Source: Natronosporangium hydrolyticum (GTDB lineage: Bacteria; Actinomycetota; Actinomycetes; Mycobacteriales; Micromonosporaceae). Taken from it: a stretch of DNA of 64,000 nucleotides. Location of the stretch: the NCBI RefSeq assembly GCF_016925615.1, contig NZ_CP070499.1, positions 3,472,001 through 3,536,000 on the forward strand, read 5' to 3'. Positions 11,385 to 60,355 of the stretch are shown piece after piece (positions within the stretch are counted from its first letter, which is position 1; each line of letters starts with the position of its first letter). Under the pieces are notes generated by a model, which made no database searches, was not told the origin of the DNA, and saw only the letters and a list, made by a program, of their open reading frames with translations. Position numbers and translations under genes: made by a program.

Positions 11385-11433
11385 GCTCCACCGGCGACCA
11401 GTGGTGGTTACGTCCGGTCGTTACGCCCGGTGG

Positions 11434-11781
11434 TCAGGCAGGTGCCGGCCCTTCCGCCGCCGGATCGTCCGGCAGCTCGGGACGGGGCCGGTCCGGCGCT
11501 GCGGTGCCAGGCGGATACAGCTCGGGCGGCACCGGTCGGGGCGGTTGGCCGGAGCGCCGGTCGAACCGTTCCAACTCCAGCAGCGCCTCGCGATACTCCA
11601 GCTCGGCGCGGCGCTGCTCGATCTCCCGCTCTTTCGCCTTGGCCTCGGCCTGCCGGGTCTCCTCCCGTTTCAGCTCCAGCTGATGCTGACGCCGGCCCTC
11701 CACAAGCTTGATGATGGCCCCCATCCCCCCGAAGACCATGAAGATCACCAACAACGGGATCAGGATCCCCGCCGAGCCCAT
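11434..11781 (-). CDS. Small membrane-anchored coiled-coil protein
   Basis: A 115-residue protein of unknown function. Residues 5-27 form one hydrophobic helix (ILIPLLVIFMVFGGMGAIIK). A highly charged helix rich in Glu, Arg and Lys (about 30-72), probably a coiled coil, and a Pro-rich tail follow. GGGGAGGG lies just before the ATG at 11781 and fixes the start; a longer frame upstream has no such support. It converges with lemA and is divergent from pirin. Confidence 0.7.
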   Translation of the reverse strand: MGSAGILIPLLVIFMVFGGMGAIIKLVEGRRQHQLELKREETRQAEAKAKEREIEQRRAELEYREALLELERFDRRSGQPPRPVPPELYPPGTAAPDRPRPELPDDPAAEGPAPA

Positions 11782-11823
11782 AGCCCTCCCCTTCCATCGC
11801 CTTCTCCAGCGTAGAGTCGACCC

Positions 11824-12804: not shown

Positions 12805-12831
12805 CTCTCCCGCCGGGCGTCGGACGCTTAG

Positions 12832-12857
12832 TACGGCAGCCCGACTTCGTTATGTAG
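12832..12857 (+). repeat. Left terminal inverted repeat of the IS701 element
   Basis: A 26-bp terminal repeat starting TACGGCAGCCCG and ending GTTATGTAG. It differs from the right end at three internal positions. TTAG lies immediately outside. Confidence 0.93.
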
Positions 12858-12943
12858 ATGTCTGACGATGCGCTGGCGCGGCCGGGGTCGGTCTCGGCGT
12901 GTCGGCGTGCGTGAACGCGGCCGCCGGTTGATCATGCACGGCT

Positions 12944-14308: not shown

Positions 14309-14326
14309 CAAACACGGGCTGCCGTA
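14301..14326 (-). repeat. Right terminal inverted repeat of the IS701 element
   Basis: Reverse complement of the left end with 23 of 26 matches. It is followed directly by TTAG, the second copy of the target duplication. Confidence 0.93.
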
Positions 14327-15466: not shown

Positions 15467-16116
15467 GGCTCGCCACCAATCGGCTCCCACTCTCGGAGAC
15501 GCCACTGCGGATTATCTCGAGGTTCAACACTTGAGGGATCGTAGAACGTTGCTTCGGCGGCAATCAACTCCTTTACTCCTGAGTGAAACACCGTAGCCGA
15601 TTCATCCGAGGAGACCGGCTCACCCGAGCCATCGATGATCCGCCAATCAGTCGCATCGACGCAGTATTGAAGGTTAACGAGCGGAACGTTCTGGTCTTCG
15701 CCACCTACATTAGCGAAGCGATCAAGATCGACCTCAACGACCTTCGCCATTTCCCAGGTAACGGCGCCGTCTCCACGCAATTCGTTCCGGGCGTTGTCAT
15801 CGATCTCGTCCCAGGTGCCCGTCAACAGAAGCCCGCCCAACTCGGGAAGCTCCGAATGCCGGGAGTTGACCGCGGGTTCGCCCTCAATGAGGATCTCCTG
15901 GTAGAGGGCGAGGAACTCGTCGACCAGGGCCGTGACCTCGTCGACGGCCGCCTGCTCCTCATCGGTCAGCTCTGGCGCCACCGGCTGCGACAACTCGGGC
16001 CGATCATCGGACGGCGGATCCGGCAGATCCGACTCCTCTTGCCCGCAGGCGGCACCGAGCAGGGCCATCGCTCCGAGAACCGCCACGAACCGCCGCCCAG
16101 CCGCTTTCGCAGTCAC
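15460..16116 (-). CDS. Lipoprotein of unknown function
   Basis: A 218-residue lipoprotein. The signal peptide ends in the lipobox L-G-A-A-C followed by G-Q-E-E, so the mature protein should be lipid-anchored on the outer face of the membrane. The GTG at 16116 is chosen because GGGGAGGG lies 7 bp upstream. The mature part is acidic, and its late segment (CVDATDWRIIDGSGEP) resembles the strand pattern of NTF2-like or similar small extracytoplasmic domains; this is only a suggestion. It overlaps the following secreted-protein gene, so the two are probably co-translated. Confidence 0.78.
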   Translation of the reverse strand: MTAKAAGRRFVAVLGAMALLGAACGQEESDLPDPPSDDRPELSQPVAPELTDEEQAAVDEVTALVDEFLALYQEILIEGEPAVNSRHSELPELGGLLLTGTWDEIDDNARNELRGDGAVTWEMAKVVEVDLDRFANVGGEDQNVPLVNLQYCVDATDWRIIDGSGEPVSSDESATVFHSGVKELIAAEATFYDPSSVEPRDNPQWRLREWEPIGGEPC

Positions 16117-16328
16117 CGCAAGACCCTCCCCTAACCAGCAACGACACACCCGGTGCGGATCAACAACGCTACTGTCGCGGACCCGTAGGCACAGTGGAGC
16201 AGTCTAGTCGCAAACCGCAACGATCGATAGTCAGCCACCTCAGGACCAGCACGGCGCAGCCCGGTAGCGAAGATCAATGCGAATATCTGGCTGCCCTGGC
16301 AACCGCTGGGTCACCATGATCTTGCGGC

Positions 16329-16428
16329 GCGGGGCGGGGCGGGGCGGGGCGGGGCGGGATGGGCGGGGCGGGATGGGCGGGGCGGGATGGGCGGGGCGGG
16401 GCGGGGCGGGGCGGGATGGGCGGGGCGG
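16329..16428. repeat. G-rich short tandem array (GGGGC and GGGATGGGC units)
   Basis: About 100 bp made almost only of GGGGC repeats interrupted by GGGATGGGC. It ends directly at the SDR stop codon. Runs of three or four G at regular spacing give strong G-quadruplex potential on the plus strand. The rest of the gap back to the lipoprotein start (16117-16328) holds no recognisable feature. Confidence 0.9.
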
Positions 16429-17151
16429 TCAGCGTCCCAGGTAGGCGCCGCCGTTGACGTGGATGACCTGGCCGGTGATGTGACGCGCGCCGGGCGACGC
16501 GACGAACTCGACGGTCGCGGCGACGTCGGCGGGGGCGCCGGGGCGCCCAACCGAGGTCTCCGCGACCAGTCGCTGCCGCCGCTGCTCACTGAGCCGCCCT
16601 TGGAAGAATTCGGTCTCCAGCACCAACCCGGGGGCGACCACGTTGGCGGTGATGCCGCGCGGGCCCAGTTTCGCCGCCAGGTCGGCGTTCCAGGCGACCA
16701 CCGCGGCCTTGGCGGCACCGTAGTCGCCACCGCCGCGGCTGCCCGCGATCGAGCCGATGGTGATGACCCGCCCGTGGTCAACCAGCCGAGGCTGCAACGC
16801 GGCGGTCACCAGGACCGCCGTGAGCAGGTTCGCTGCCAGCTGGTGGCGCCACCCCTCGGCCAGGGCCACCAGCTCGTCTGGCGACGGTGCCGGCTCCCCG
16901 GCCGCCACGATGCCGCCCGCATTGTTGACCAGCACGTCGACCTCGGCCGGCAGCTCCGGCAAGCTCGCCCGCACCGCGACCGGGTCGGCCGCGTCGAAGC
17001 TGACCGCCTGCGCGCCGATCCGCTGCGCCGCCTCGGACAGCACAGACTCCCGCCGGCCCGTGATCGCGACCCGGTCGCCGTTGGCGATGAAGGCCTGCGC
17101 GATCGCGAGCCCGATGCCGGTGCCGCCGCCGGTGACCACCACCTGCCGCAT
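16429..17151 (-). CDS. SDR-family NAD(P)-dependent oxidoreductase
   Basis: A 240-residue classical short-chain dehydrogenase/reductase. The cofactor motif T-G-G-G-T-G-I-G is at residues 7-14. N-N-A-G, the catalytic Ser in ITIGSIAG and the Y-x3-K pair in YGAAKA follow. The R residues after strand 2 (ITGRRES) suggest NADP(H) preference. Similar proteins are annotated as 3-oxoacyl-ACP reductases, but the substrate is unknown. The Shine-Dalgarno AAAGGAG overlaps a palindrome that recurs in front of the MarR gene 0.6 kb away, so MarR control is likely. Confidence 0.92.
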   Translation of the reverse strand: MRQVVVTGGGTGIGLAIAQAFIANGDRVAITGRRESVLSEAAQRIGAQAVSFDAADPVAVRASLPELPAEVDVLVNNAGGIVAAGEPAPSPDELVALAEGWRHQLAANLLTAVLVTAALQPRLVDHGRVITIGSIAGSRGGGDYGAAKAAVVAWNADLAAKLGPRGITANVVAPGLVLETEFFQGRLSEQRRQRLVAETSVGRPGAPADVAATVEFVASPGARHITGQVIHVNGGAYLGR

Positions 17152-17159
17152 GAAAACTC

Positions 17160-17173
17160 CTTTAGACCTAAAG
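17160..17173. promoter_or_regulatory. Candidate MarR operator at the SDR start
   Basis: CTTTAG-AC-CTAAAG is a perfect inverted repeat overlapping the SDR ribosome-binding site. It matches 11 of 14 positions of the site at 17734-17747 next to the MarR gene, and both copies are followed by TAG. Confidence 0.6.
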
Positions 17174-17272
17174 TAGTTGGCGTGATTTCACTATAACGCG
17201 CGGCAACCCTTCGGGGCGCTGCCGGCCGGTTCAGTCTTGACGGGCTCGCCCCACCCCAACTTGATGATCTTG

Positions 17273-17612
17273 GGGCGGGAGGGGTGCAGACCCGGTTGCG
17301 TGGCCTACGAGAGCTGCTAGCACAAACGGAGCAGCGCCGGCCGGCTGTCGCCACCGCGCCGGGGACGGTTAGGCGGGGGTCAGACTGGCCATATCGGGGC
17401 GACCACCGCCGCCCGGGCTTTCCCCGATCTGGGCATCGTTGCACCTGGGGGCGGGGGTAATCGCCGCGCAGAGAACTCGTCGAGCAGTGGGGCCCTGCCC
17501 GATCGTTCTCCGGCACGGCGCCGACAGTCGGCCGGCTGACCGGGTGGGCGCTGCTCCGTTTGGGCTAGCAGCTCTCGTAGGCCACGCAACCGGGTCCGCG
17601 CCCCTCCCGCCC
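17273..17612. repeat. Long inverted repeat (66-bp arms) between the SDR and MarR genes
   Basis: Two 66-bp arms, 17273-17338 and 17547-17612, are reverse complements at 63 of 66 positions and flank 208 bp. Weaker inverted similarity continues on both sides, for example GATGATCTTG at the left and CAAGATCAAC at the right, and CGGCCGGCTGTCG against its counterpart. The pattern suggests two inverted copies of an element of roughly 100-150 bp. No protein-coding capacity was recognised in the 600-bp gap. Confidence 0.88.
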
Positions 17613-17733
17613 AACGCCACAAGATCAACAAATGGGCGGAACGGTCGAGGGCGCGTCAGCCAGTTCGACCAAGGTCGCCTCCCGAGCCAGCAAGGGCAGC
17701 GCGTGCAGGGGAAACTCCTGCTCGCGCAGATTC

Positions 17734-17747
17734 CTTAAGGCCTAAAC
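17734..17747. promoter_or_regulatory. Candidate MarR operator upstream of the MarR gene
   Basis: CTTAAG-GC-CTAAAC lies 7 bp before the MarR ATG and resembles the perfect palindrome at the SDR start. It covers the position where a ribosome-binding site would be, which suggests autorepression. Confidence 0.5.
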
Positions 17748-17754
17748 TAGCTGC

Positions 17755-18306
17755 ATGGCGCACGACAGCACCGCTACCGACCCTGTGCCGAGCCCGGATC
17801 AGGTGGACGAGATCACCGAGGCCTGGCGACGGGAGCGACCCGCTACCCCGGTGGAGTCGATCCAGGTGATCACCCGAATCACCCGGCTGGCGAAGCTCTT
17901 CGCCGACGACCGACGGCGGACGCTCGGCCAGCTCGGGATCGACTCAGCCACCCTGGACCTGCTCGCCACCCTGCGCCGCGCCGGCCCGCCATACCAGCTC
18001 TCCCCCGGCCAACTGGCGCAGCGTGCCCTGGTCAGCGCCGGAGCGGTCAGTCAGCGGGTGGCCCGCGCGCAACGGAGCGGCCTGGTCGCGCGGCAGCCGG
18101 CCGGCGGCGACGGCCGAGGTGTCCTGGTCACGCTCACCGCCGCCGGCCACGCGCTGGTGGAACGGACCGTGGACGAGCTGCTACGACACGAGGAGACCCT
18201 GCTCGCGCCGCTTACGGCGCCGCAACGGAAGCAACTCGCGGCGACCCTTCGTGCGCTGCTGACTCAGTTGTCGGCGGCTCGCTCCGAGCCCCCTGCCGGA
18301 CACTGA
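17755..18306 (+). CDS. MarR-family transcriptional regulator
   Basis: A 183-residue MarR-type dimeric winged-helix repressor. The wHTH spans about residues 60-125: the recognition region reads LAQRALVSAGAVSQRVARAQ and the wing reads L-V-A-R-Q-P-A-G-G-D-G-R-G-V-L-V-T-L-T. Helical dimerisation segments lie at both ends. Matching palindromes at its own start and at the SDR start make these its likely targets. Its last 95 bp overlap the 3' end of the convergent PAP2 gene. Confidence 0.92.
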   Translation: MAHDSTATDPVPSPDQVDEITEAWRRERPATPVESIQVITRITRLAKLFADDRRRTLGQLGIDSATLDLLATLRRAGPPYQLSPGQLAQRALVSAGAVSQRVARAQRSGLVARQPAGGDGRGVLVTLTAAGHALVERTVDELLRHEETLLAPLTAPQRKQLAATLRALLTQLSAARSEPPAGH

Positions 18307-19186
18307 CCGAGCCGTTGCGCGGCGGCACCGCCACGTGGACGCTGGCCAACACCAACGCCATCATCAGACTCGCCGCGCCGACGATCCCGGCGGCCCCACC
18401 CGCGTACGCGGTGAAGAGTAGCTGCTGGTCATACCAGGCGGGCTGCGCCGCCAACTCCCGCGCGGTCAGGAACATCATCCCGCCTGCGCCGGCCAGCAGA
18501 ACCAGCCCCACCAGCAGCAGCGTCAACAGCGGCTTCCGGTGGCCCGGCGAGGGCCCGGCCGCCCGGTCCTGGTGGTGCGCGATCGCCAGCACCAGCCCGG
18601 CCACCGCCGCCCACACCCCCACCACGAGGAATGATGCCACCGCGTCACTGGGCCGGTGCCAGCCGGCGGAGAGCGTCGCCACCCCGGCCAACCCCGCGTA
18701 CGCGCCGCCGATCAGGCCCGCCACCCCCCGCACCGCCGGCGGCAGGACCAGCACCAGCGCCACCGCCACGGAAGCGGCGACGGTGGTGTGGCCGCTGGGC
18801 AGGCTGTTGCCGGCGCCCACCCGCTCCAGGTCGACGCCGAACTCCGGCCGCTCGATCGCGTACTTCAACACCTGGGTGGTGAGGTTCGCCCCGATGATCA
18901 GCAGGGTGGCGGCGGCCGCGAGCGCCACCCGGCGCCGCATCAACGCGATAAAACCGATCACGATGGTGGCGGCCGCCAGCGACAACACCGTCATCGCGCT
19001 CAGCACCACATCGACGACTTCGTCGATGTGTTCCTGGCCGATGCTGTTGCCGTTGAGCGCAACGGTGTCGAGCAGCTGACCACGGCGCGTGGCCACAAAC
19101 ACGCGACGGATCAGCTCGAACGCTGCCACCTGGGCAGCCACCAGCAGCAGCAGCCATGCCGCCAAGCCCCACGTCAACCGTCGCAT
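18212..19186 (-). CDS. PAP2-family membrane phosphatase
   Basis: About 324 residues with six or more membrane helices and the PAP2 catalytic signature: K-Y-A-I-E-R-P (a shortened K-x-R-P motif), P-S-G-H-T-T-V and G-W-H-R-P-S-D. Relatives dephosphorylate phosphatidic acid or undecaprenyl diphosphate at the outer face of the membrane. The C-terminal tail after the last helix is polar and overlaps the convergent MarR gene by 95 bp. The ATG at 19186 is used; an in-frame GTG lies two codons earlier. It is the last gene of a same-strand run that includes HAD, alcohol dehydrogenase and aldehyde dehydrogenase. Confidence 0.88.
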   Translation of the reverse strand: MRRLTWGLAAWLLLLVAAQVAAFELIRRVFVATRRGQLLDTVALNGNSIGQEHIDEVVDVVLSAMTVLSLAAATIVIGFIALMRRRVALAAAATLLIIGANLTTQVLKYAIERPEFGVDLERVGAGNSLPSGHTTVAASVAVALVLVLPPAVRGVAGLIGGAYAGLAGVATLSAGWHRPSDAVASFLVVGVWAAVAGLVLAIAHHQDRAAGPSPGHRKPLLTLLLVGLVLLAGAGGMMFLTARELAAQPAWYDQQLLFTAYAGGAAGIVGAASLMMALVLASVHVAVPPRNGSVSVRQGARSEPPTTESAAHEGSPRVASVAAP

Positions 19187-32798: not shown

Positions 32799-34430
32799 TC
32801 AGCTACCCGTGGAGCAGGTGAGGCCGTCCTCTGGGGCGGTCACGTCGAGCAGGTAGCTGTGGACCGCGTCGTTGACGCAGCCGGACTGGGGGTAGACCGT
32901 ATGCCCCTCCCCCTCGTAGGTCAGCACCACGCCGGTGCCGAGCAGGTCCGCCAATCGGGGCGTCGACTCGTACGGTGTGGCCGGATCGCCGGTGGTGCCG
33001 ATGACCAGGATCGGCGGCGCCCCCTCTGCCTCCCCGTACGGGTACGGGTCGGGCTCGCCGGGCCACAACACACACTCCAGTGCCATCACCGCCAGCGGGG
33101 CTCCGAAGAGGGGATGCGCTTCCCGCTGTTGCTCCTGCCGCGTCCGAACCTCCGCAACGGTCAGCTCGGAGTCGCTGTCGGCGCAGTTGATCGCGGCGTT
33201 CGCGTCGAACATGTTGGGGTAGCTGCCGTTACCGTCGCGGCCACTGTAGAGGTCCGCCAAGGTGAAGACACCCCGCGGGTCGCCCTGGCCCAGGTCGTGG
33301 ATCGCGGTGGCGAGCTGTGGCCACAACTCCTCAACGTAGAGCGACGACACCACCGCGTAGAACACCCAGCCGGCGGTCGCGTCCCGATCGCCCGGGCCCG
33401 GCACCGGGTCCTGCCGCGCCTGCTCGATCGCGTCGGTCACCACCGCGCGGGCATCGTCACCGAGCGGGCACTGCCCCGGGGTCGCCGCGCACCAGGCGGC
33501 GAAGTTGTCGAACGCCCGCTCGAAGCCAGCGGCCTGACCGCCCTCCGTGGCGCCCTCGGCGGCCCCTTCCACCCCACGGCTGGGGTCGACCGCACCGTCG
33601 AGAACCAGCGCCCGCACATTGTCCGGGTAGAGGTGGGCGTAGACCGCGCCGAGCAGGGTGCCGTAGGAGTAGCCCAGGTAGCTCAACTGCTCGTCGCCGA
33701 CCGCCTCCCGGATCGCGTCCAGGTCGTGCGCGGTCTGCCGGGTGGAGTAGTAGCTCAAGCCATCCCCGTGCGCGTCGTCGCACTTGTCGACCCGCTGCTG
33801 CGCCGCGTCGACGGCGGCGTCGAAGTCGGCGTCGCTGACCGGGTCCGGGTCGGCGCCGAAGGATTCGTCCAGGTCGGCATCGGTGAAACAGGAGACCGGG
33901 CTCGACCGGGCGACCCCGCGGGGATCGAAGCCGACCAGATCAAAATCGTCCATCACCGCATCCGGCAGACCGCCCAGCAACGGCTGCAACGAGAGATAGA
34001 CTGCGGCGTCCACACCCGACGCACCGGGACCGCCCGGGTTGACCACCAGCGAGCCGATCCGATCCGGATCGTCACCCTTGCGGACCCGGACCAACGCCAG
34101 GTCGAAGGTGTCACCCGAGTCGGGCTCGGCCCAGTCCTGCGGCACCGGCAAGGTGGTGCACTCATAGGTCCGACCGGCGGTCAACAGGCTGGCGGCGACC
34201 CCGGTGATCAGATCCATGACGATGCCGGGCAGCACGCCGGCCGGCATCGCTTGCGACAGCGCCTCCCGGGGCAGCTCCGGGCACGGTTCCCACACCACGT
34301 CGGTATCCCAGGCCGCCGGAGCGTGGGTGGGCTCCGGCTCGGCCGGCTCCTCCGTCACTCCGTTACAGCCGGCGGCGGTGACAGCGGTGGCCAGCAGGAC
34401 CGCGATCGCGATCCGGGGGGTACGTTTCAT
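32799..34430 (-). CDS. Secreted alpha/beta hydrolase, tripeptidyl-aminopeptidase (SlpD/SlpE) family lipoprotein
   Basis: A 543-residue exported alpha/beta hydrolase. The signal peptide ends in a lipobox (V-T-A-A-G-C), so it should be lipid-anchored. The oxyanion region is V-V-N-P-G-G-P-G-A-S-G and the nucleophile elbow is L-G-Y-S-Y-G-T. The C-terminal TAP-like part carries the Asp (I-G-T-T-G-D-P-A-T-P) and His (E-G-H-T-V-Y). Streptomyces relatives are mycelium-associated tripeptidyl aminopeptidases. The ATG at 34430 (M-K-R-T-P-R) starts a proper signal peptide; nine extra upstream codons are unlikely. It lies 37 bp after the HerA-like gene on the same strand. Confidence 0.92.
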   Translation of the reverse strand: MKRTPRIAIAVLLATAVTAAGCNGVTEEPAEPEPTHAPAAWDTDVVWEPCPELPREALSQAMPAGVLPGIVMDLITGVAASLLTAGRTYECTTLPVPQDWAEPDSGDTFDLALVRVRKGDDPDRIGSLVVNPGGPGASGVDAAVYLSLQPLLGGLPDAVMDDFDLVGFDPRGVARSSPVSCFTDADLDESFGADPDPVSDADFDAAVDAAQQRVDKCDDAHGDGLSYYSTRQTAHDLDAIREAVGDEQLSYLGYSYGTLLGAVYAHLYPDNVRALVLDGAVDPSRGVEGAAEGATEGGQAAGFERAFDNFAAWCAATPGQCPLGDDARAVVTDAIEQARQDPVPGPGDRDATAGWVFYAVVSSLYVEELWPQLATAIHDLGQGDPRGVFTLADLYSGRDGNGSYPNMFDANAAINCADSDSELTVAEVRTRQEQQREAHPLFGAPLAVMALECVLWPGEPDPYPYGEAEGAPPILVIGTTGDPATPYESTPRLADLLGTGVVLTYEGEGHTVYPQSGCVNDAVHSYLLDVTAPEDGLTCSTGS

Positions 34431-34466: not shown

Positions 34467-37400
34467 CTATTCATGATCCAACGTGATCTTCGCCAACACC
34501 TCTTCGGGAGTGAGCGCGCTGGCGGGATGGTGGCTCAGGCACAACGGCGCCTGCAGCTTGCGGAAGCCGGCACCCTCGATCGCGGCGTAGAACTCACCCT
34601 TGCCCAGCCGCCCGATGTCCGGCACCTCCCCCGCCTTGGCCCGCGCCAACTCCTTCGCCGCGGCGATCTGCGCGGGCACGTTGAGCAGTCCGAAGAACTG
34701 CGTCGACGCGTTGCCGGAGATCTGATTGTGCAGGCTCTTCGGCGCCTGGGTAGCGAAGACCAACCCCAGGCCGTACTTGCGGGCCTGGGCGGTGAGCGCG
34801 ATCGTGCTCTGGGTGCACGGCGTCATCCCCTGCGCCGGGGCCAGGGTCGCCGCCTCATCCATGACGAAGAGACCGCCGAGCGGCCGGTCGCCGGCCGGGT
34901 GCTGTTTGATCCAGGCGAACAGCGCCAGCTGCAGCTGGTTGACGAAGCTCTGCTTGCTCTCGTTGGAGGCCAAGCCGACGAAGCTAACCACCGAGATCCG
35001 GGAGCGCCGGCCCGGCGCCGGGGTCAGCAGCACCCCCGGGTCCACTGGCGCGCCGACCTCGCTGGCGAAGAGTCGATCGTTGACCGTCGCGGCCCGCAGA
35101 TTCTGGGCGAGTTCGTTGGCGAGCTTTGTCGCCTCGTCGAGCTGGCTGACGCCCTCCGGCAACTCCGAGAGCAGCTCGATGAACCCAGCCAGCTCGCTGC
35201 TGCCCTGCCTGCCATAGTGGCGCAGCGCCTCCCGCAGCACCGCCTGGCCGCGGCTCGCCTTCGGCGTCTTGCCCTCCACCCGGGCCCGTGGTGCCAGCGC
35301 CGCCACCGCCGCCTCCACGGCCTGCTCGAACTCATCTGGATCGCCGCGGACTTCGGCGAAATCGGGCAGCGGCTGGAAGCTCAACGGTCGGCCGGCGAGG
35401 GTGCCCGGGGTCCAGATCACCACCTCGGTATGGGCGAGGTAGTCGGCGGCGGCGGCTTCGTCGCCGGGCCACCAACCGGCGGGCGGCTCCGGCCACGGGT
35501 CGCCCAACCGCGCCAGGTCGTTGTTCGGGTCCAGCACGATCGCGGAGACGCCCTGCCGGGCACACTCCTCGACCAGCCGTCGAATCAGAACGGTCTTACC
35601 CGACCCGGAGCCGGCGAAGATCACGGTGTGTCGGCGCAACGCCGCCAAGTCGACGCCGACCGGCTCGCCGTCCTCCCTGGCTCTGCCAACCAGGACCGCG
35701 GGTGCCGTCGACGCTTCGCTGTCGGGTTTGTGGGGTGGCAAGGGCTCCGTGCCTATCGTTCCGGACCCCTCCGGCGTCGTGTCGTCGAGCCCCGGGGCAA
35801 GGTCCTCGACGACGTCGAGGAAGGCTGCCTGGAACAGCGCAATGCCGTGCGCCGGTCGCCTGGCCGCCAGCCATGGCCGCAACGCGTCGATCCCGCGCGC
35901 CTCTAACAACTCCCGCAGCGCAGTCAAGGTTCGGACGTCGTCGTCCGGCAGCGGCAGCACCTCCCCGCCAGCTTTGTGGAAGGTCTCCAGCGTCTCAGCT
36001 GTACGCCGGCCGCGATTCCAATCTTCGTTGCGGAGCAGGAACAGCCGTCGCTTCGGTACCCCCTCGGTGAGCCCGGCCGCGGTCATCGCGTTTCGGACCC
36101 GATTGAGCTCTGAGTTGCCGTGGGCCGGGGCGACCGCCCGGAAGCACCAGTGGACCTCGTCCTCGCGCTGCTCGGCGAGGCTGCGCCGGAGGCGGGCATG
36201 CAACGCCGGCCTCCGGCCCGGGGGAGGGTCGACATAGAAGCCCGCGCCCGCGGCGTCCGCCTCCGCTATCCATATCGTCAGGCCGGCGTGCAGCAACCCC
36301 GGCATCCGCGTGTCCTCACTCCGAAGCGCCAGGGCAAGGGTCGGATCGACGCTCGCCCGCAGCTCGGCGAACTCCTGGTCCAAGGAGACCAGCTCCGCCT
36401 CGGTGGCGCGCCGCGCCGGGCGGCCGGCCGGGCGCTGAGGGGTGTCACGCAGGTCCGAGAGCTCCCGGACCTCGCCGTCCCGTAGACACGCCCGCACATG
36501 CGTATCGACGGTTATCAGCAGTTGGCGGGGGGTGAACTTCCTCGCGCGAGCGAACGCGACCGGTGCGATCGGCCAGGTCGGATACGGCGGGGTGAAGCCC
36601 ACCTCGGCGAATCGTTCCGTGAACCTCCTCGCCACGAGCTGTTCGGCCAGCTCCGGAGTCGGAATACGCCACAGGGTCGCGGTCGGCTTGAACCGGTCCT
36701 GCACCGTATCGGTCGCGTAGTTGCGCACCATCTCCCAGACCTGCGGCAGACAGGAGACTATCGAGAGCGTCCGCCGAGTCGCTTCCCGTAGCGCCATCAG
36801 CCCGCCCGCAACCTGCTCCAAAACAAGCGCTTGCCGTAAGCGGTCCTCCGGGGATCCCGCGAGCCCGGTCTCGCTGCCGGCCGCCGACTTCACTGACTGA
36901 GCGATAAGCAGATCGATCTGGTCGACCGCGATGACGGTCGGGCCGGTCAGCGCGAGCAAGCGGGAGAGCTCTCGGACCACATCCTGGGAGGTGTGCCGGC
37001 TGCGCCGGATGCCCCACCGCGCCCGCTCGCCGTGTTCGCCCTCGTCGTTGCCGCAGAGGTACGCATGGCCGATGTCCTGCTGTTCGAAAACGTCGGAGGC
37101 CAGCAACACCAACGCCCGCAGCGTGTGCTGGCAGGCCATCCCGACCTGCGGACTGGCCTTGCGGAGCTGATCGACGAACGCGTCCAGGCTCGCCCGGGAA
37201 AGTTCAGCCTCCCCGACCGCCGCCTGCCGCACTGCCGGCGGGGCCCCAACCAGCTCAGCCAGCCGGCGTAGGAATCCGGTAAGCTGGCTGCCCTCGCCCG
37301 CATCCCGCGGCAGATCCTCCACCATCGAAAGCGCAGCGCTACGCCAGAAGGTGCTCGCGTCCCGCAGGCCAATCAAGAAGAAGTAACCGTCGGCCAGATG

Positions 37401-37643
37401 GAGCTGCTCGCGCACCCAGCCCAGCAGATGCGTCTTGCCGGAGCCGCGTTGCCCTAGGACCGCGACCCCGACCGGGCTGGATCCGTCGCTACGCACGGCA
37501 TCAGCGATGCCTGCGAGGATGGTTCTCTCTGCTTGCAGGTGCAAGCCCGCCACATGGAACGGTGTCGCACGCCAAACGTCATCGGGGGTGGGCGCCCAGT
37601 TGAAGCTGAGCGCTTCCAACGCGTCGCGTTCGGCCTCGTTCAT
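34467..37643 (-). CDS. Double ATPase: N-terminal AAA module fused to a C-terminal HerA/FtsK-like ATPase
   Basis: A 1058-residue cytoplasmic protein with two P-loop modules. The first (about 25-400) resembles Orc/Cdc6-like AAA ATPases: Walker A G-Q-R-G-S-G-K-T at 64-71 and Walker B T-V-I-A-V-D-Q-I-D near 236-244. A middle region (about 420-600) with mixed alpha/beta pattern is not recognised. The second (about 640-1058) is HerA/DUF87-like: G-S-G-S-G-K-T at 678-684, I-V-L-D-P-N-N-D-L-A, the Walker B V-M-D-E-A, and V-F-A-T-Q-A-P-K-S-L-H-N. HerA-type proteins are DNA translocases and recur in defence and conjugation systems. The ATG at 37643 overlaps the stop of the upstream wHTH gene. Confidence 0.87.
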   Translation of the reverse strand: MNEAERDALEALSFNWAPTPDDVWRATPFHVAGLHLQAERTILAGIADAVRSDGSSPVGVAVLGQRGSGKTHLLGWVREQLHLADGYFFLIGLRDASTFWRSAALSMVEDLPRDAGEGSQLTGFLRRLAELVGAPPAVRQAAVGEAELSRASLDAFVDQLRKASPQVGMACQHTLRALVLLASDVFEQQDIGHAYLCGNDEGEHGERARWGIRRSRHTSQDVVRELSRLLALTGPTVIAVDQIDLLIAQSVKSAAGSETGLAGSPEDRLRQALVLEQVAGGLMALREATRRTLSIVSCLPQVWEMVRNYATDTVQDRFKPTATLWRIPTPELAEQLVARRFTERFAEVGFTPPYPTWPIAPVAFARARKFTPRQLLITVDTHVRACLRDGEVRELSDLRDTPQRPAGRPARRATEAELVSLDQEFAELRASVDPTLALALRSEDTRMPGLLHAGLTIWIAEADAAGAGFYVDPPPGRRPALHARLRRSLAEQREDEVHWCFRAVAPAHGNSELNRVRNAMTAAGLTEGVPKRRLFLLRNEDWNRGRRTAETLETFHKAGGEVLPLPDDDVRTLTALRELLEARGIDALRPWLAARRPAHGIALFQAAFLDVVEDLAPGLDDTTPEGSGTIGTEPLPPHKPDSEASTAPAVLVGRAREDGEPVGVDLAALRRHTVIFAGSGSGKTVLIRRLVEECARQGVSAIVLDPNNDLARLGDPWPEPPAGWWPGDEAAAADYLAHTEVVIWTPGTLAGRPLSFQPLPDFAEVRGDPDEFEQAVEAAVAALAPRARVEGKTPKASRGQAVLREALRHYGRQGSSELAGFIELLSELPEGVSQLDEATKLANELAQNLRAATVNDRLFASEVGAPVDPGVLLTPAPGRRSRISVVSFVGLASNESKQSFVNQLQLALFAWIKQHPAGDRPLGGLFVMDEAATLAPAQGMTPCTQSTIALTAQARKYGLGLVFATQAPKSLHNQISGNASTQFFGLLNVPAQIAAAKELARAKAGEVPDIGRLGKGEFYAAIEGAGFRKLQAPLCLSHHPASALTPEEVLAKITLDHE

Positions 37644-38281
37644 TCCGGACCGATCGATATCAAATGCTTCTGCTGATTTCCGATCCACACCGCTGCCGCC
37701 CGGTCCGCATCGGTCAGGGCCAGTTGGTCAGAGGCTGGGGCCAGGGCGACCTGTGGATCGTCACTGAGCTCCAGCAGAGCTTCATCGACCTCGTCGCTGG
37801 CTGCGGCGCCTAGGAGCGGCCGCAGCTGCGCGAGCCGGACCCAGCCGCCGGGCCGGTCGACGAGCTCTTGGTACGCCTTGCGGGCCCGGGCCGCCAACTC
37901 CGAGGTGTTCGCTGGCGAGTGGGTCAGCGGATCCTCCCTGGAGAAGAACTCGGGTAGGCTGATGCCGAGCCGGTCCAACCCTCGCTGCACATTGGCCAGC
38001 AGTGCATACGCCGCGCCCCCGCCGGCACCGAGCCCCGGCGGGACCGGGACCTCGGCCTGCTGGCGACCCCACCGCCACCCCGCCTCTGTGAGCTCCAGGT
38101 GATACCGCTGGCCCTCTCGGCGGGCCGAGATCAACTCCGCCGTCACCAGCCGCTCACGGAAATTCTTCTTGAGCTCGCACCGGAAGTGGTTGGTGAGTTC
38201 TGAGTTCGCCACCTCCCGAGCCTCCGCCATGAGGATCATCAATACCGAGCGCTGCACCAGGGTCAGCTTCTCGTCCGACAT
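37640..38281 (-). CDS. Winged-helix protein coupled to the AAA-HerA gene
   Basis: A 213-residue protein of unknown function. The N-terminal 90 residues look like a winged helix (L-T-L-V-Q-R-S-V-L-M-I-L-M-A-E-A, then E-L-T-N-H-F with a wing near R-R-E-G-Q-R-Y-H-L-E-L-T-E-A-G). The rest is helical. The ATG at 38281 has GAAGGGA upstream. It is the first gene of the minus-strand operon and its stop overlaps the AAA-HerA start, so the two products probably act together, perhaps as a DNA-binding or adaptor subunit. Family name not recognised. Confidence 0.75.
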   Translation of the reverse strand: MSDEKLTLVQRSVLMILMAEAREVANSELTNHFRCELKKNFRERLVTAELISARREGQRYHLELTEAGWRWGRQQAEVPVPPGLGAGGGAAYALLANVQRGLDRLGISLPEFFSREDPLTHSPANTSELAARARKAYQELVDRPGGWVRLAQLRPLLGAAASDEVDEALLELSDDPQVALAPASDQLALTDADRAAAVWIGNQQKHLISIGPE

Positions 38282-38430
38282 CCCGAGTCCCTTCACGTCC
38301 GGGGCGGCGCCGCCCCAAGCCCAGAAATGTTGGCCGGTCTCGTCCCCCTGAGCATATCCCGCGATCGTCCTACATCAATCTACGATCATTCGATAGGCTT
38401 CGTTCAAACATCGGCCGCTTGTCGCTGATT

Positions 38431-38459
38431 GTCGCATGAGGATGAGCCGATCATGCGAC
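38431..38459. promoter_or_regulatory. Palindrome in the divergent promoter region of the HerA and trypsin-NACHT operons
   Basis: GTCGCATGA-N11-TCATGCGAC has perfect 9-bp arms and a 29-bp span. It lies in the 232-bp gap between the wHTH start (38281) and the Trypco1-like start (38514). A 20-bp centre-to-centre spacing suits a dimeric regulator on one DNA face, so it may coordinate the two operons. Confidence 0.55.
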
Positions 38460-38513
38460 CCGCCTGCGGGGGCGGTGCCTCCTATGATGGCGAGGTTTGA
38501 ACGGAGGTCGATT

Positions 38514-38825
38514 GTGGCGGCAACCCAGATCGTCAGCTATCAGGTCGATGATCAGACAACAGTGGAGATTGAGGCCGCCCTGGCAGAGGGCTACCTGCCA
38601 GCGGGCAGGGGGGAAGACGTAGTCGGGTGGGTCAAGCAGGCCGCAGCGCCATCGATCCGGGCTGCTGGCGTCGTGTTGGCGCAAGCCCAGGAGCTGGCCC
38701 CCGACGAGGTCTCGGTCACCTTCGGGGTAAAGGTCGCGGGCCGGGTCAACTGGCTGGTGGCGCAGACCGCCAGCGAGGGAACCTTCCAGGTGGCCCTCAC
38801 CTGGCGACGGAGTTCGGACGGTTAA
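38514..38825 (+). CDS. Trypco1-like (CU044_2847-type) small protein
   Basis: A 103-residue protein. The C-terminal half (P-D-E-V-S-V-T-F-G-V-K-V-A-G-R, then A-S-E-G-T-F-Q-V-A-L-T-W) matches the pattern of trypsin-co-occurring domain 1. Those small proteins accompany trypsin-like peptidases in actinobacterial conflict systems. The GTG at 38514 is chosen because GGAGG lies 6 bp upstream; earlier in-frame ATGs run through the operator. It ends 4 bp before the trypsin-NACHT-WD40 gene, so the two are translationally linked. Its job may be to anchor or regulate the protease. Confidence 0.83.
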   Translation: MAATQIVSYQVDDQTTVEIEAALAEGYLPAGRGEDVVGWVKQAAAPSIRAAGVVLAQAQELAPDEVSVTFGVKVAGRVNWLVAQTASEGTFQVALTWRRSSDG

Positions 38826-38829: not shown

Positions 38830-41800
38830 GTGCCGACCCGCCTCACCTCGCCCCCGGACTCGTGGACCGCCGCGGTCCACCCGGGCCCGGACGACTGCCG
38901 GATCCTCGGCACCGGCGTGGTCATCGCCGAGCACCGCGTCCTGACCAGCGCACACATACTGCGAACCGCACAGGGGCGGCGCAATCGCGTCTGGGTCGCC
39001 TTCCCCAAGGCCGGCGTGCCCTACCAGGAACGGCGGGAAGCCCACTGCCGATTCATCGGGGATCCCCGCGATCTCGACCTTGCCGTGCTGGAGCTGGTGC
39101 ACCCCGCCCCGGCAGCGGCACTGCCGGCTCGAATACGCTGTGTACCCGCGGACGAACTCCGCAACCTTGACTGGTGGACGTTCGGATTTCCAGCTAGCCA
39201 CCAGGGCGCCGGCAACGAAGCGCACGGCCGGGTCGGCGCGACGCTGAGCTACGGCACGGTCCAGCTGGAGGTCCACCCGGCTTCCCTGCTTGATCAAGGC
39301 TTCAGCGGCAGCGGCGTCTGGGCCTCGGAGTACGCTGCGGTGGTAGGACTGGTGACCGCCGCTGCCGCGGTCGGCCGTGGCCAGGGCAACGGCTTTGCCT
39401 TGACCCTTGACTGGATCGACCACGAACTGCCCGATCTGGAGCTGCGCCGGATCGGACGCTGGCGCGCCGAGGCGGCCGACGACCGGGCGCTGGCGGCCTG
39501 GGGGTGGCGCCGCCGGCCCGATCCGGCACTCGGACGGCACTGGTCGCCACGCAGCCAGGGGGTGCTCAGCAGCGAGGAGCCGGGATGCGGTTTCCACGGT
39601 AGACGGCGGGCGCTGACCGACCTGCTGGAGTGGCTGAACGCGCTCCCCGACGGGCGATTGTTGGTGGTCACCGGCTCGCCCGGGGTAGGCAAGTCGGCGC
39701 TACTCGGCAGGATCGTGACCACCTCAGATCCCGAGTTGTCGGCGCAACTGCCCGCTCAGGACGACGCTCTCCGGGCGCCACTCGGGTCGGTCACCTGCGC
39801 GGTGCACGCCAGCGGAAAGACCGCTACCGAGGTCGCCGCCGAAATCGCCCGCGCCGCCTCGGTAGCCATTCCCGCAAGTGCTGAGGAGCTGGTGCCGGTG
39901 CTGCGACGCCGGCTACGCCTTCAGCCGGGCCGGTTCACCCTGATCCTGGACGCGCTCGACGAGATGGCCTCACCCGACCAACCGCGGCTCATCCAGCAGG
40001 TGCTCCCCTTGCTGGTCGAGCCTGGTCCAGGGGCGGCCCAGGTCGTCGTTGCTACCCGCCGCGCCGATCAGCAGGGTGACCTGCTCGAGGCATTTGCCGA
40101 CTCCGCCGTCGTCATGGATCTCGACCGACATCCCTATATGGCCGAGGCTGACCTGGTCGCCTACGCCACCGCCGTACTCCAGCGGTGGGGAGCAGACCGT
40201 GCCGACCACCCGTACCGACCAGCGGCCGCAGCCGCGCCGGTCGCCCAGCGAATCGCGGCGTGCTCCGGCGGCAACTTCCTGATCGCGGGACTGATCGCAC
40301 GAGGCCATGCCCGGGACGACACCGAGCCGGTCGACCCGGCCGACGTCTCCTTCTCACCAACCGTCGATGCCGCCCTCGAGTCGTACCTGGCCGGACTGGC
40401 GCCGGTCGGGACCAGCTCAGCCAGACTTGCGCTCACGGTGCTGGCCTATGCGGAGTCGCCCGGGATTCCGCTGCCGATGTGGCACGCTGGGATCGCCGCG
40501 CTCGGCGGAGATGCCGAAGAGCTTCAGCTGGCGGAGTTCGCTCACGGGCCTGCGGCTAACTTTCTCGTAGGCACCGACTCTGGTCCGTCAGTGCGGGGTT
40601 ACCGACTGTTTCACCAGGCGCTCGCCGACGCGCTCCGGCGCGCCCGAGAGACGAGCGGCGTCAGCAACGCTGCTGACCAGGCCAGTCTGTTGGCCGTGTG
40701 GCTCCGACAAGGCCGTGGCACTGGCTGGACCACCGCCTACGACTACCTGCTGCGGCGGTTGCCGGTCCACGCGGAACAGGCGGGAGCGGTGGACGAACTG
40801 CTCTGCGACGACAGTTACCTGCTGCATGCGGACCTCGCGGCGATCAGTCGAGTGACCCAGGCGGCGGGCTCGGGGCTTAGCCGACGCCGCGCCCGGTTGC
40901 TACACCGGACACCTCAAGCGGTTACCGCCGAACCGATGACCCGTGCGGCGTTGTTCTCCGTGTCTGACCTCATCGACCAGCTAGCGACCGGCTTGCCCGC
41001 GAGTCGTGCGCCGTATCAAGGACGTTGGGCACACACCCGCCCCCGCGGCGAGCACACATCGCTCGAGGGCCACACGACCGCCGTACTCGCCGTCTCCTCC
41101 GTACCAGGGCCCGAGGGTGATCTGCTCGCCTCGGCCGGCGCCGATGGCACGATCCGGCTCTGGGACCCCGCGACCGGCCAGCCCAAACGCGTGCTCGATG
41201 GTCACACCGACCAGGTGTACGCCCTCTGTGCGCTGCCCGGCTGCCTCGGTTACTCGCTCGCCTCGGCCGGCGCCGACCACACCGTACGGGTCTGGGACGT
41301 GGTGAGGGGCGAGCCCGGGCCGGTCATGGCCGGCCACACCGATTGGGTCCGTGGGCTGTGCGCGATCACCGTAGCCGAGCGACCGCTGCTCGCCTCGGCC
41401 AGCGACGACCACACGGTCCGGCTCTGGGACCCCATGAGCGGTGACCAGCTCGGCAAGCTGCCGCACCCCGGCTGGGTCACGGCGGTCTGCCCGGTCACGG
41501 TAGCGGGCACGACGCTACTCGCCACTGCTGGTCTCGATCTCCCGGTTACGTTGTGGGATCCGGGCACCGGGGAGCGGGTTGGCGAATTCGCCGCTCCGCC
41601 CTACTGGTTAACCTCGCTGGCGGCAGTCTCCGTCGCGGAGCGGGAACTGCTCGCCGGTGCCGGATACGGCAACGGGCTCTGGTTATGGGATCCCGGCAAC
41701 GGTCAGCCCGGCCAACTGGCGGCTGCGATCGACGCTCCGGTAGCTGCGTTGGCCACGCTACCGCCCGGCGGGCGAAGTCAGCTCGCAGCGGCGGGCGAAG

Positions 41801-42882
41801 ACCGCTTAGTCAGGCTATGGGACCCGGCCACGGGCCGACTGGGCCCGGTACTGGCTGGCCACACCGACCAGGTAAGGGGAGTCTGCGCCGTCAAGGCCGG
41901 TGGTCGATCACTGCTCGCCTCCGCTGGCGACGACGGCACCGTTCGACTGTGGGATCCGAGCACCGGGGCAGCTGAGCGGGTGCTTGACGGCGCTGGGCTG
42001 GTGGCCCGGTTGGCGCTGTCGACCGCTGCTCACCCCAGAGTAGTCGCCGCCGCTGGTGGGGACGGTGATGTCCACCTCTTCGATCTGGTTACCGGTCGTC
42101 CGGGGAGACGGCTCGCCGCCGGCCCGGCCGCTGCCACCAGCATCTGCCCCCTGCCAGCTTCAGTTACTAGCTTCGCGGTCGGTACGGACCATGGCGCTGT
42201 CCAGCTATGGGAGCCGGAGAGCGGCTCGATCCGGATGCTCTCAGCAGGTCGTCCCGGCGCTCCGATCACAGGCGTCGCAGCCGTGGCCGGTCCAGCGGGC
42301 TACCTAGTCGCTGCCGCCAGCGATGACGAATGGGTCCGGCTTTGGCGCTTGGAGACCCGTAACCTGGAGCTGGTGCTTCACCACCTGTGCCGGGTGACCG
42401 CGATCTGCGCCGTGCCGACCTCCGGTGGCGAGCAGCTACTCGCCACCGCAGACGAGGACGGCGTGGTGCGGCTGTGGGACCCGGCCAGCGGAGAACGGCT
42501 CCACAGCCTTCGAGGGCACCACGCCGCCGCCACCGCGCTGTGCTCGGTCACCACCGGCGGGCGGCAGTTGCTCGCCTCGGCCAGCGAAGACCGGGGCATC
42601 CTGGTCTGGGACCCGGAGACCGGCGACCGGGTCGCCACCTTGCCGGGCCACTCTGGACGGGTAACTGACCTGTGCCCGGTCCAGATCGGCGAGGGCGACC
42701 AGCTGCTCGCCTCCACCAGCGAAGACCGCACGGTGCGGCTCTGGGAGCCGGCCAGCGGCGCCTGCCGGCATCAGATCCCCGTCTACCATCCCGCCCTCGC
42801 CTGCCGGTACACCGACGGCATCCTGGTGCTCGGGTTGACCGCCGGCATCCTCGCCATCGACCTCCGGCCGACCCTACTCTGA
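38830..42882 (+). CDS. Trypsin-NACHT-WD40 protein (protease-NTPase sensor)
   Basis: A 1350-residue cytoplasmic protein with three parts. The trypsin-like peptidase (about 10-200) has His42 in V-L-T-S-A-H, Asp83 in D-L-D-L-A-V and the nucleophile Ser159 in G-F-S-G-S-G. The STAND/NACHT-type NTPase (about 250-560) has Walker A G-S-P-G-V-G-K-S-A at 282-290 and Walker B L-I-L-D-A-L-D-E at 371-378. From about 730 to the end there are thirteen clear WD40 units, most ending R-L-W-D-P, plus a degenerate last one, enough for two seven-bladed propellers. STAND proteins oligomerise when the propeller senses a ligand; here that would activate the protease. The GTG start lies 4 bp after the Trypco1-like gene. 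Confidence 0.93.
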   Translation: MPTRLTSPPDSWTAAVHPGPDDCRILGTGVVIAEHRVLTSAHILRTAQGRRNRVWVAFPKAGVPYQERREAHCRFIGDPRDLDLAVLELVHPAPAAALPARIRCVPADELRNLDWWTFGFPASHQGAGNEAHGRVGATLSYGTVQLEVHPASLLDQGFSGSGVWASEYAAVVGLVTAAAAVGRGQGNGFALTLDWIDHELPDLELRRIGRWRAEAADDRALAAWGWRRRPDPALGRHWSPRSQGVLSSEEPGCGFHGRRRALTDLLEWLNALPDGRLLVVTGSPGVGKSALLGRIVTTSDPELSAQLPAQDDALRAPLGSVTCAVHASGKTATEVAAEIARAASVAIPASAEELVPVLRRRLRLQPGRFTLILDALDEMASPDQPRLIQQVLPLLVEPGPGAAQVVVATRRADQQGDLLEAFADSAVVMDLDRHPYMAEADLVAYATAVLQRWGADRADHPYRPAAAAAPVAQRIAACSGGNFLIAGLIARGHARDDTEPVDPADVSFSPTVDAALESYLAGLAPVGTSSARLALTVLAYAESPGIPLPMWHAGIAALGGDAEELQLAEFAHGPAANFLVGTDSGPSVRGYRLFHQALADALRRARETSGVSNAADQASLLAVWLRQGRGTGWTTAYDYLLRRLPVHAEQAGAVDELLCDDSYLLHADLAAISRVTQAAGSGLSRRRARLLHRTPQAVTAEPMTRAALFSVSDLIDQLATGLPASRAPYQGRWAHTRPRGEHTSLEGHTTAVLAVSSVPGPEGDLLASAGADGTIRLWDPATGQPKRVLDGHTDQVYALCALPGCLGYSLASAGADHTVRVWDVVRGEPGPVMAGHTDWVRGLCAITVAERPLLASASDDHTVRLWDPMSGDQLGKLPHPGWVTAVCPVTVAGTTLLATAGLDLPVTLWDPGTGERVGEFAAPPYWLTSLAAVSVAERELLAGAGYGNGLWLWDPGNGQPGQLAAAIDAPVAALATLPPGGRSQLAAAGEDRLVRLWDPATGRLGPVLAGHTDQVRGVCAVKAGGRSLLASAGDDGTVRLWDPSTGAAERVLDGAGLVARLALSTAAHPRVVAAAGGDGDVHLFDLVTGRPGRRLAAGPAAATSICPLPASVTSFAVGTDHGAVQLWEPESGSIRMLSAGRPGAPITGVAAVAGPAGYLVAAASDDEWVRLWRLETRNLELVLHHLCRVTAICAVPTSGGEQLLATADEDGVVRLWDPASGERLHSLRGHHAAATALCSVTTGGRQLLASASEDRGILVWDPETGDRVATLPGHSGRVTDLCPVQIGEGDQLLASTSEDRTVRLWEPASGACRHQIPVYHPALACRYTDGILVLGLTAGILAIDLRPTLL

Positions 42883-60290: not shown

Positions 60291-60355
60291 GTGATCAACT
60301 TCCCTGGAGCTGTACGGCACGCGGCGTGTCGTACAGCTCCAGGGAAGTTGATCAC
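60291..60355. repeat. 65-bp near-perfect palindromic repeat, copy 1
   Basis: Two 32-bp arms around one base, with a single mismatch, starting GTGATCAACTTCCCTGGAGC. The sequence recurs at 61488-61544. It lies between convergent genes, and its right edge contains the TGA stop codon of the DUF559-type gene. It can fold into a very stable cruciform or RNA hairpin. Confidence 0.95.

What the first reader, a model, noticed from the sequence alone, without database searches (positions are those of the whole stretch)
34467..38281. AAA (Orc-like) plus HerA fusion with a coupled winged-helix partner
One 1058-residue chain carries two complete P-loop ATPase modules of different kinds (Walker A at 64-71 and 678-684), separated by about 180 residues with no fold that I recognise. 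HerA proteins normally have a separate NurA nuclease; here none is present, and the middle region or an external partner would have to provide it. The ATGA overlap with the wHTH gene points to a stable complex.
Basis: partly seen in the sequence, partly recalled or inferred. Interest (0 to 1): 0.62.

Follow-up and report, generated by a model that had tools for sequence, protein, structure and literature searches.

The report
DNA-pump defence with swapped effector
A bacterial gene pair encodes a two-motor DNA-handling machine that in most relatives travels with a DNA-cutting enzyme, but in this genome's version the cutter is gone and a protease-plus-alarm-ATPase module sits in its place, hinting that one defence core can drive very different weapons.

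Summary
Window 34467-37643(-) encodes a 1058-residue chain with an AAA+ and a HerA/FtsK-type ATPase, coupled by ATGA to an upstream ~214-aa putative wHTH gene. The pair is conserved: 87 of 87 related loci examined have that wHTH gene immediately upstream, 79 overlapping by 1 or 4 bases. The "unrecognised" middle (415-615) is a confidently modelled alpha/beta domain resembling PD-(D/E)XK restriction nucleases, but the metal-binding motif is gone in 85 of 85 sequences: an inactive nuclease fold. An active-looking nuclease (DUF559) is encoded directly upstream in 42 of 87 loci, and also in an alphaproteobacterial plasmid operon. These five domains (AAA+, inactive REase, HerA, wHTH, active REase) are those published for Orc/CDC6-HerA "HerA-FtsK capture" anti-invader systems (PMC10853773), so the class is not new. 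New here: in one clade (12 of 87 loci, window included) the nuclease is absent and a divergent Trypco1 + trypsin-STAND-WD40 pair is present, in 11 distinguishable genomic contexts and with matching phylogenetic distances. I read the window as a capture-type defence core whose nuclease effector was exchanged for a protease/STAND module. Function is inferred; nothing here is experimental.

The parts
34467..37643 (-). AAA+ / inactive-REase-like / HerA fusion gene, 1058 aa
36474..37556 (-). AAA+ module (residues ~30-390), Walker A 64-71, Walker B 240-244, invariant R317
   Evidence: AAA_16 4.4e-9; conservation; model
35799..36401 (-). middle domain (residues ~415-615): PD-(D/E)XK-like fold, metal-binding motif lost, basic conserved residues H482 R484 H498 R502 R515 R532 R538
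   Evidence: models; structural matches; conservation
35709..35798 (-). disordered linker (residues 616-645)
   Evidence: pLDDT <50 at 618-645
34470..35708 (-). HerA/FtsK-superfamily motor (residues 646-1058), Walker A 677-684, Walker B 928-931
   Evidence: DUF87 3.1e-12; mad8 1.8e-21; Z 28.0 Sso HerA, 27.7 DndH-C
37640..38281 (-). putative winged-helix partner, 213 aa from ATG 38281 (218 aa from GTG 38296); 4-base ATGA overlap with the fusion gene
38297..38513 (.). divergent intergenic region; lacks the GGCAGAATCGG element found here in 10 of 12 loci of the clade
38514..38825 (+). Trypco1 (trypsin-co-occurring domain 1) gene, 103 aa (an upstream ATG at 38436 gives 129 aa)
   Evidence: PF19493 8.7e-14
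38830..42882 (+). trypsin-like / STAND P-loop / WD40 protein, 1350 aa; triad H42-D83-S159 present, Walker A GSPGVGKS, DALDE

Best explanation
The window holds a variant Orc/CDC6-HerA 'capture' anti-invader system. Shown by sequence and model: a wHTH-type protein and a single chain with AAA+, nuclease-fold (inactive) and HerA/FtsK motor domains form a fixed two-gene core. In many relatives the core's operon starts with a DUF559 nuclease; in the window's clade that gene is absent and a divergently transcribed Trypco1 + trypsin-STAND-WD40 pair is present. Inferred: the wHTH protein and the basic inactive-nuclease domain recognise or hold invading DNA, the AAA+ ring loads or gates the complex, and the HerA motor pumps the captured DNA. 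In the common form the DNA is fed to the DUF559 nuclease. In the window form, engagement of DNA (or of a phage component sensed by the WD40 propeller) activates the STAND ATPase and so the trypsin-like protease, giving a cell-level (abortive) response instead of DNA cleavage.
For: Core pairing 87 of 87 loci, 79 overlapping by 1 or 4 bases. Middle domain: among the 20 best VIA rows I count 17 nuclease-fold entries (VC1899 Z 7.4, Card1 6.5, LlaBIII 6.1, Avs4 6.0, EndoMS 5.8, MspJI, FokI, Cap4...) (fold labels of several entries recalled). No conserved lysine; position 500 is A/C/S/G and 502 is R in 85 of 85. DUF559 upstream, same strand, 42 of 87 (PDB 3hrl 9.4e-12), and in a Methylobacterium aquaticum plasmid operon whose fusion protein is 39% identical and a Tsukamurella record. 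Window clade: 12 trypsin-type rows + 1 contig-edge row, SH-aLRT 98; no such nuclease beside the cassette in those 12 loci or L062 (the one hit is an unrelated DUF559 gene ~22 kb away in the window); 6 of 8 whole genomes with the cassette have no full-length family nuclease anywhere. Cassette linkage kept while flanks change: 1 of 66 locus pairs shares an immediate flank family; distance matrices of fusion and trypsin-STAND correlate r=0.82, 0 of 2000 permutations as high. Of 9 trypsin-STAND homologues at E<1e-100 in 397 genomes, 8 lie beside the fusion gene (against 27). Trypco1 is missing in exactly the two loci whose trypsin lost H and S (L052, L055). Published class with the same five domains: PMC10853773, section 22 read whole.
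Against: No experiment. 28 of 87 loci, mostly mycobacterial, have neither DUF559, trypsin-STAND nor family 42 beside the core, so the core may act alone. Prevalence in the family is high for a defence gene (207 of 350 genomes), and no copy was found in phage or viral collections. Trypsin catalytic residues are lost in 2 of 12 loci, so proteolysis is not always needed. The STAND-WD40 pair is divergent, not co-operonic, and one genome (G723) has it away from the fusion gene, while a more remote relative in G487 also lies elsewhere. The window copy is odd: Walker-B-adjacent Q932 is A only here (84 of 85 have Q), and the promoter-like element is missing. The distance correlation could also arise from simple shared descent. 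Structural matches of the middle domain are weak (best Foldseek E 0.027; Z below 8).
Confidence: 0.55

Rival explanations
1. The wHTH + AAA/HerA core and the Trypco1/trypsin-STAND pair are two independent defence units that happen to stay neighbours as one mobile cassette; the core needs no local effector.
For: 28 of 87 loci have the core without any of the three partner types; the partner pair is on the opposite strand; G723 carries a trypsin-STAND homologue apart from its fusion genes (against 27).
Against: The partner pair and the DUF559 nuclease never occur together beside the core (0 of the 54 loci that have one of them); the partner is in all 12 clade members whose flank is held, across differing flanks.
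Confidence: 0.25
2. A cellular DNA-repair or DNA-segregation translocase (HerA-NurA or FtsK type) rather than a defence system.
For: HerA structural match Z 28.0; found in 207 of 350 genomes of the family; intact motor motifs in 85 of 85.
Against: No NurA in the genome; patchy (absent in 1 of 3 congeners), with changing flanks; relatives on a plasmid; partner exchange and STAND/trypsin/Trypco1 neighbours are hallmarks of conflict systems (PMC7159879, PMC10853773).
Confidence: 0.12
3. The middle domain is itself the active nuclease, so no external nuclease is needed.
For: Nuclease-like fold; invariant D472, H482, D569 and near-invariant H498 could conceivably form an unusual site.
Against: No conserved (D/E)xK and no conserved lysine in 85 sequences; Methylobacterium has the same kind of strand without (D/E)xK (HVCYRA) yet keeps DUF559.
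Confidence: 0.05
4. A derived piece of the MADS system, its HerA module being Mad8.
For: mad8 model matches 38 of 38 HerA modules tested (best 6.8e-22).
Against: Only the motor matches; among 10 neighbours only a citrate-synthase-like gene gives a 26-residue HTH match to mad1 (3.1e-4), and no methyltransferase or other mad gene is listed.
Confidence: 0.03

Closest known systems
Orc/CDC6-HerA 'HerA-FtsK capture' systems (Rakesh, Aravind, Krishnan 2024, PMC10853773; section 22 read whole, other passages by find)
   Same: AAA+ ATPase, inactive REase after the AAA+ core, HerA/FtsK motor, wHTH, and (in 42 of 87 relatives) an active REase-type gene in the operon
   Different: All three of AAA+, inactive REase and HerA on one chain with the wHTH as a separate upstream gene; nuclease is DUF559 (word absent from that paper's main text); the window's clade replaces it by Trypco1 + trypsin-STAND-WD40
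Mad8 of the MADS anti-phage system (PADLOC mad8; system described from recall)
   Same: closest named defence HerA motor by profile (1.8e-21)
   Different: no AAA+ or inactive-REase fusion in the 314-position model; no other mad gene found among 10 neighbours apart from one 26-residue HTH match
HerA-NurA repair complex
   Same: DUF87 motor, Z 28.0 to Sso HerA
   Different: no NurA in the genome, no HAS barrel seen, extra AAA+ and nuclease-fold domains
SIR2-HerA / DUF4297-HerA (Nezha-type) anti-phage complexes
   Same: HerA motor paired with a separate effector protein; Z about 18-27
   Different: effector here is DUF559 or trypsin-STAND; motor carries AAA+ and wHTH partner
Trypco/trypsin NTP-dependent conflict systems (PMC7159879, passages read) and AVAST type 1 (Avs1b)
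   Same: Trypco1 + trypsin-like domain with a STAND ATPase; Avs1b model hits residues 26-164 at 7.9e-8
   Different: here tied to an AAA/HerA/wHTH core, not to MoxR-vWA-VMAP

Membership tests
Orc/CDC6-HerA capture systems | HerA/FtsK motor with intact Walker motifs | tested here: met
Orc/CDC6-HerA capture systems | Orc/CDC6-family AAA+ ATPase | tested here: inconclusive
   AAA_16 above cut-off, ORC-CDC6-like PF24389 E=0.005 below cut-off; PDB profile search gave no specific Orc hit
Orc/CDC6-HerA capture systems | inactive REase domain after the AAA+ core | tested here: met
   fold matches are weak (Z <= 7.4)
Orc/CDC6-HerA capture systems | iREase sits between AAA+ core and a C-terminal wHTH in the same chain | tested here: not met
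   after 415-615 comes the linker and HerA; the wHTH-type protein is a separate gene
Orc/CDC6-HerA capture systems | active REase in the operon | tested here: not met
   absent beside the core in the window and its clade; met in 42 of 87 relatives by DUF559
Orc/CDC6-HerA capture systems | wHTH component | tested here: inconclusive
   weak winged-helix matches: DUF6293_C in 6 of 66 members, best 4.8e-4; no structure predicted
HerA-NurA | NurA nuclease encoded in the genome | tested here: not met
   0 of 1; control rings in 7 of 14
HerA-NurA | N-terminal HAS beta-barrel before the motor | tested here: not met
   only two strands (649-655, 661-665) between a disordered linker and the P-loop; no HAS-barrel family listed
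MADS | mad8-type motor | tested here: met
MADS | rest of the mad gene set, with methyltransferase, alongside (recalled) | tested here: not met
   10 neighbours; only a 26-residue HTH match to mad1 in a citrate-synthase-like gene
Trypco/trypsin conflict module | Trypco1 gene next to a trypsin-like domain | tested here: met
Trypco/trypsin conflict module | MoxR-vWA-VMAP ternary partners | not tested
   no dedicated search; none named among the neighbours scanned
Anti-phage/anti-plasmid defence (function) | protection measured in cells | not testable with these tools
   -

The most novel reading that the evidence does not exclude
One conserved DNA-capture motor (wHTH + AAA/inactive-nuclease/HerA) has an exchangeable effector port: in its history the partner nuclease was swapped for a protease-carrying STAND sensor (window clade) and, in 5 loci, for another P-loop ATPase protein of 581-722 aa. 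DNA capture would thus be wired to proteolytic, caspase-like suicide signalling instead of DNA cutting.
Probability: 0.4. Interest if true: 0.75.

Novelty: new variant of a known kind. Interest (0 to 1): 0.5.

Why it matters
If true, it makes effector exchange in HerA-type defence directly testable: the same core occurs in natural loci with a nuclease, with a trypsin-STAND module, or with neither, sometimes in one genome (the window genome carries both forms). It would also give the Trypco1/trypsin conflict proteins a candidate upstream trigger, and it supplies a defined three-gene operon family (DUF559-wHTH-AAA/HerA) common in Mycobacteriales for experimental work on the predicted, untested 'capture' idea.

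Tried and rejected
Distant HerA-like hits outside the order (about 800-1000 aa, 27-31% identity; neighbourhoods) were read as a separate stand-alone DUF87 family and dropped, because only the HerA part matches and no AAA+ or wHTH partner was seen. Split versions (two pieces, e.g. G616, G505, G718) were read as insertions in the linker, not separate genes; not pursued.

The search for an active site in the middle domain (all conserved D/E/K/H/Q columns) found no (D/E)xK. Pfam (61 members) and PDB-sequence profiles of the middle domain gave no meaningful family. PDB profile of the wHTH gave calmodulin noise, with AspA wHTH at 0.031. The full-length structure search could not test the AAA+ part: all rows shown are filled by the motor.

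Viral contigs and phages held no relative. The paper searches for Mad8/MADS listed no paper on the Mad8 protein itself. The literature searches for this combination were made; only listings were seen, and one search's two hits name HerA once each. No statement that the family is absent from the supplementary data of PMC10853773 is possible: supplements could not be read.

Rows dropped: L074 and L079 (fragmentary fusion genes in my gene calls) were left out of the 85-row alignment and tree. L062 and L099 lack enough upstream DNA and are labelled 'edge'. The 80 named loci are the best 80 of 324 confirmed, so counts per 87 are biased to close relatives. The window's genome and its relatives in the genome search are unnamed.
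Full report
1. What is there. The fusion ORF runs 34467-37643 on the minus strand and starts at an ATG that overlaps the stop of the upstream gene (ATGA), giving 1058 residues; my codon-usage gene caller picks the same start. Pfam places AAA_16 in the N-terminal third and DUF87 in the C-terminal third; PADLOC's best model is mad8 (1.8e-21). Phage families match only the motor. The window genome holds a paralogue, 55% identical, at 2,493,925-2,497,200.

2. Distribution. In a draw of 396 genomes of the phylum, full-length relatives appear in 6 genomes, all of the same order. In the order 95 of 397 genomes have it (E<=1e-30), in the family 207 of 350 (E<=1e-100), in the genus 2 of 3. In genome contigs 324 candidate stretches encode a relative and the best 80 were kept: Micromonospora, Actinoplanes, Nonomuraea, Streptosporangium, Pseudonocardia, Kribbella, Mycolicibacterium, Rhodococcus and others. 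A 39% identical copy lies on a Methylobacterium aquaticum plasmid. No copy was found in phage or viral-contig collections.

3. The two-gene core. Two of the other eight (L074, L079) have fragmentary fusion calls. The winged-helix assignment itself rests on weak profile matches (DUF6293_C in 6 of 66, best 4.8e-4; HTH_27 in 3 of 66); its C-terminal half has a conserved motif to which these scans gave no convincing family.

4. The middle region. AlphaFold2 with 85 sequences gives mean pLDDT 90.7; the segments below 50 are 257-261 and 618-645. Residues 415-615 show helix-strand-strand-strand-helix-strand order, as in restriction nucleases. Folded alone (pLDDT 88.9, pTM 0.80), its best structural neighbours are mostly nuclease-fold proteins: VC1899 (Z 7.4, rmsd 3.7, 121 aligned), Card1 (6.5, 4.4, 115), Cdn1, Can2, LlaBIII (6.1), Avs4 (6.0), EndoMS (5.8), MspJI, Bse634I, EcoT38I, FokI, Cap4; by my count 17 of the first 20 rows, the others being acetyl-CoA carboxylases (I assigned several fold labels from recall). 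All Z are below 8 and the best Foldseek E is 0.027, so the assignment rests on consistency and topology, not on one strong match. In the strand that carries (D/E)xK in active enzymes, the positions are A/C/S/G (500) and R (502, 85 of 85); no lysine is conserved in the domain, while H482, R484, R502, R515, R532, R538 are unchanged in 85 of 85 and H498 in 84. I read it as an inactive, basic, probably DNA-binding nuclease fold.

5. The motor. The C-terminal part matches Sulfolobus HerA (Z 28.0, rmsd 4.2, 322 aligned) and the C-terminal domain of DndH (Z 27.7, rmsd 4.5, 329 aligned) equally. All 38 motor domains tested match mad8. There is no room for the HerA HAS barrel (two strands after a disordered linker) and no NurA in the genome. 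Q932 next to the Walker B is Q in 84 of 85 and A in the window alone.

6. The partner at the effector position. Neighbour clustering found three gene families tied to the core. (a) A nuclease, 86-394 aa as called (the shortest a fragment beside a fragmentary fusion gene), with a C-terminal DUF559 domain (Pfam 3e-14 to 5e-9 in the six members scanned; PDB 3hrl 9.4e-12; invariant D250, E261, D263, H267) at position -2, same strand, in 42 of 87. (b) A 1291-1368 aa trypsin/STAND/WD40 protein, opposite strand, in 12 of 87, with Trypco1 between in 10 of those 12: the window type. (c) A 581-722 aa P-loop protein in 5 of 87 (the one scanned: AAA_16 only at 0.03). 28 of 87 have none of these. No locus has both (a) and (b) beside the core; in the trypsin-type loci the only DUF559 match is an unrelated gene ~22 kb away in the window.

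7. History. In the 85-row tree the 12 trypsin-type rows and one contig-edge row form one group (SH-aLRT 98) with the window as first branch, among DUF559-type groups; all partner labels need 11 changes against a shuffled mean of 42.2. The tree is midpoint-rooted and quick, so direction (loss of DUF559, gain of trypsin-STAND) is inferred; the three-gene operon in Methylobacterium supports DUF559 as the older state. Of 66 pairs of trypsin-type loci, 1 shares a gene family in the two genes next to the cassette, and the distances of fusion and trypsin-STAND proteins correlate (r 0.82; 0 of 2000 permutations as high; 0.74 without the window). In 397 genomes, 9 trypsin-STAND homologues score better than 1e-100 and 8 of these lie next to a fusion gene; G723 is the exception, and its own fusion gene has a DUF559 nuclease beside it. 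Six of the eight genomes with the window-type cassette have no full-length family nuclease elsewhere; G000 and G766 have one beside their second fusion copy, the G766 copy being interrupted by a stop.

8. The trypsin. The window has H42, D83, S159. L052 and L055 lost H and S, and these are the two loci in which Trypco1 was not found even in six frames. The STAND Walker A and DALDE motif are intact in 12 of 12.

9. Mechanism and literature. PMC10853773 (abstract, section 22 whole, other passages by find) describes Orc/CDC6-HerA neighbourhoods with an inactive REase, an active REase, a HerA/FtsK and a wHTH 'in various arrangements', and proposes that the motor intercepts invader DNA. PMC12839542 (outline and passages) repeats this and adds a BREX-related form. 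That is the same domain set as here, so the class is known; the fused order, DUF559 and the trypsin-STAND exchange are not in the text I read. PMC7159879 (passages) defines Trypco1 as a companion of trypsin-like peptidases in conflict systems; PMC10907252 (passages) calls it an adapter. Steps shown here: gene order, linkage, folds by prediction, loss of motif. Steps inferred: DNA capture, pumping, hand-over, protease activation, defence.

10. Verdict. New variant of a known kind. The fusion is not a lone oddity but the core of a widespread actinobacterial system; the interesting point is the exchange of a nuclease for a protease/STAND module, suggested by comparative evidence and open to test.

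Noticed in passing
L038 (G000:C1:2485001-2505000), 7323-18578: The genome's second copy is the DUF559-wHTH-AAA/HerA type and lies next to a RAMP-superfamily gene (PF03787 1.7e-15) and a Cas_APE2256-like gene, i.e. a type III CRISPR-like neighbourhood. PADLOC's 'Type III coevolved' HerA model also hits the window chain (1.4e-8).
   Followed up: partly
L163 8293-13261 and L042 6502-11368: The three-gene operon sits inside the ribosomal-protein operon, between rplN and rpsQ, in Tsukamurella (annotated) and apparently in genome G278: a possible integration hotspot.
   Followed up: no
intergenic region upstream of the wHTH gene in L052-L071 and L039: A conserved block (GTCGG(A/T)T.., GACCTTGC, ~16 bases, GGCAGAATCGG), perhaps a promoter/operator, occurs 47-121 bases upstream in 10 of 12 trypsin-type loci and, at other distances, in 1 of 40 DUF559-type and 1 of 5 family-42 loci; missing in the window and, as matched, in L064.
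   Followed up: partly
L052, L055: Loss of trypsin catalytic H and S coincides with absence of Trypco1 (2 of 12 loci, both changes together), suggesting that Trypco1 serves the active protease.
   Followed up: partly
window 34467-37643, residue 932: Q after the Walker B DEA is A only in the window (84 of 85 have Q); possible slowed or altered ATPase.
   Followed up: no
L068, L090, L103, L118, L128 position -2: A third partner type, 581-722 aa with a P-loop (GGSSxGKT in the two read), takes the nuclease's place; the one scanned gives only a very weak AAA_16 match.
   Followed up: partly
window 32799-34430(-): TAP-like alpha/beta hydrolase just downstream of the fusion gene matches PADLOC's C3a206 candidate at 1.5e-99; probably an ordinary secreted peptidase family; it does not cluster as a common neighbour.
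   Followed up: no
window 60352-61350(-): An unrelated DUF559 protein, not part of this system.
   Followed up: no
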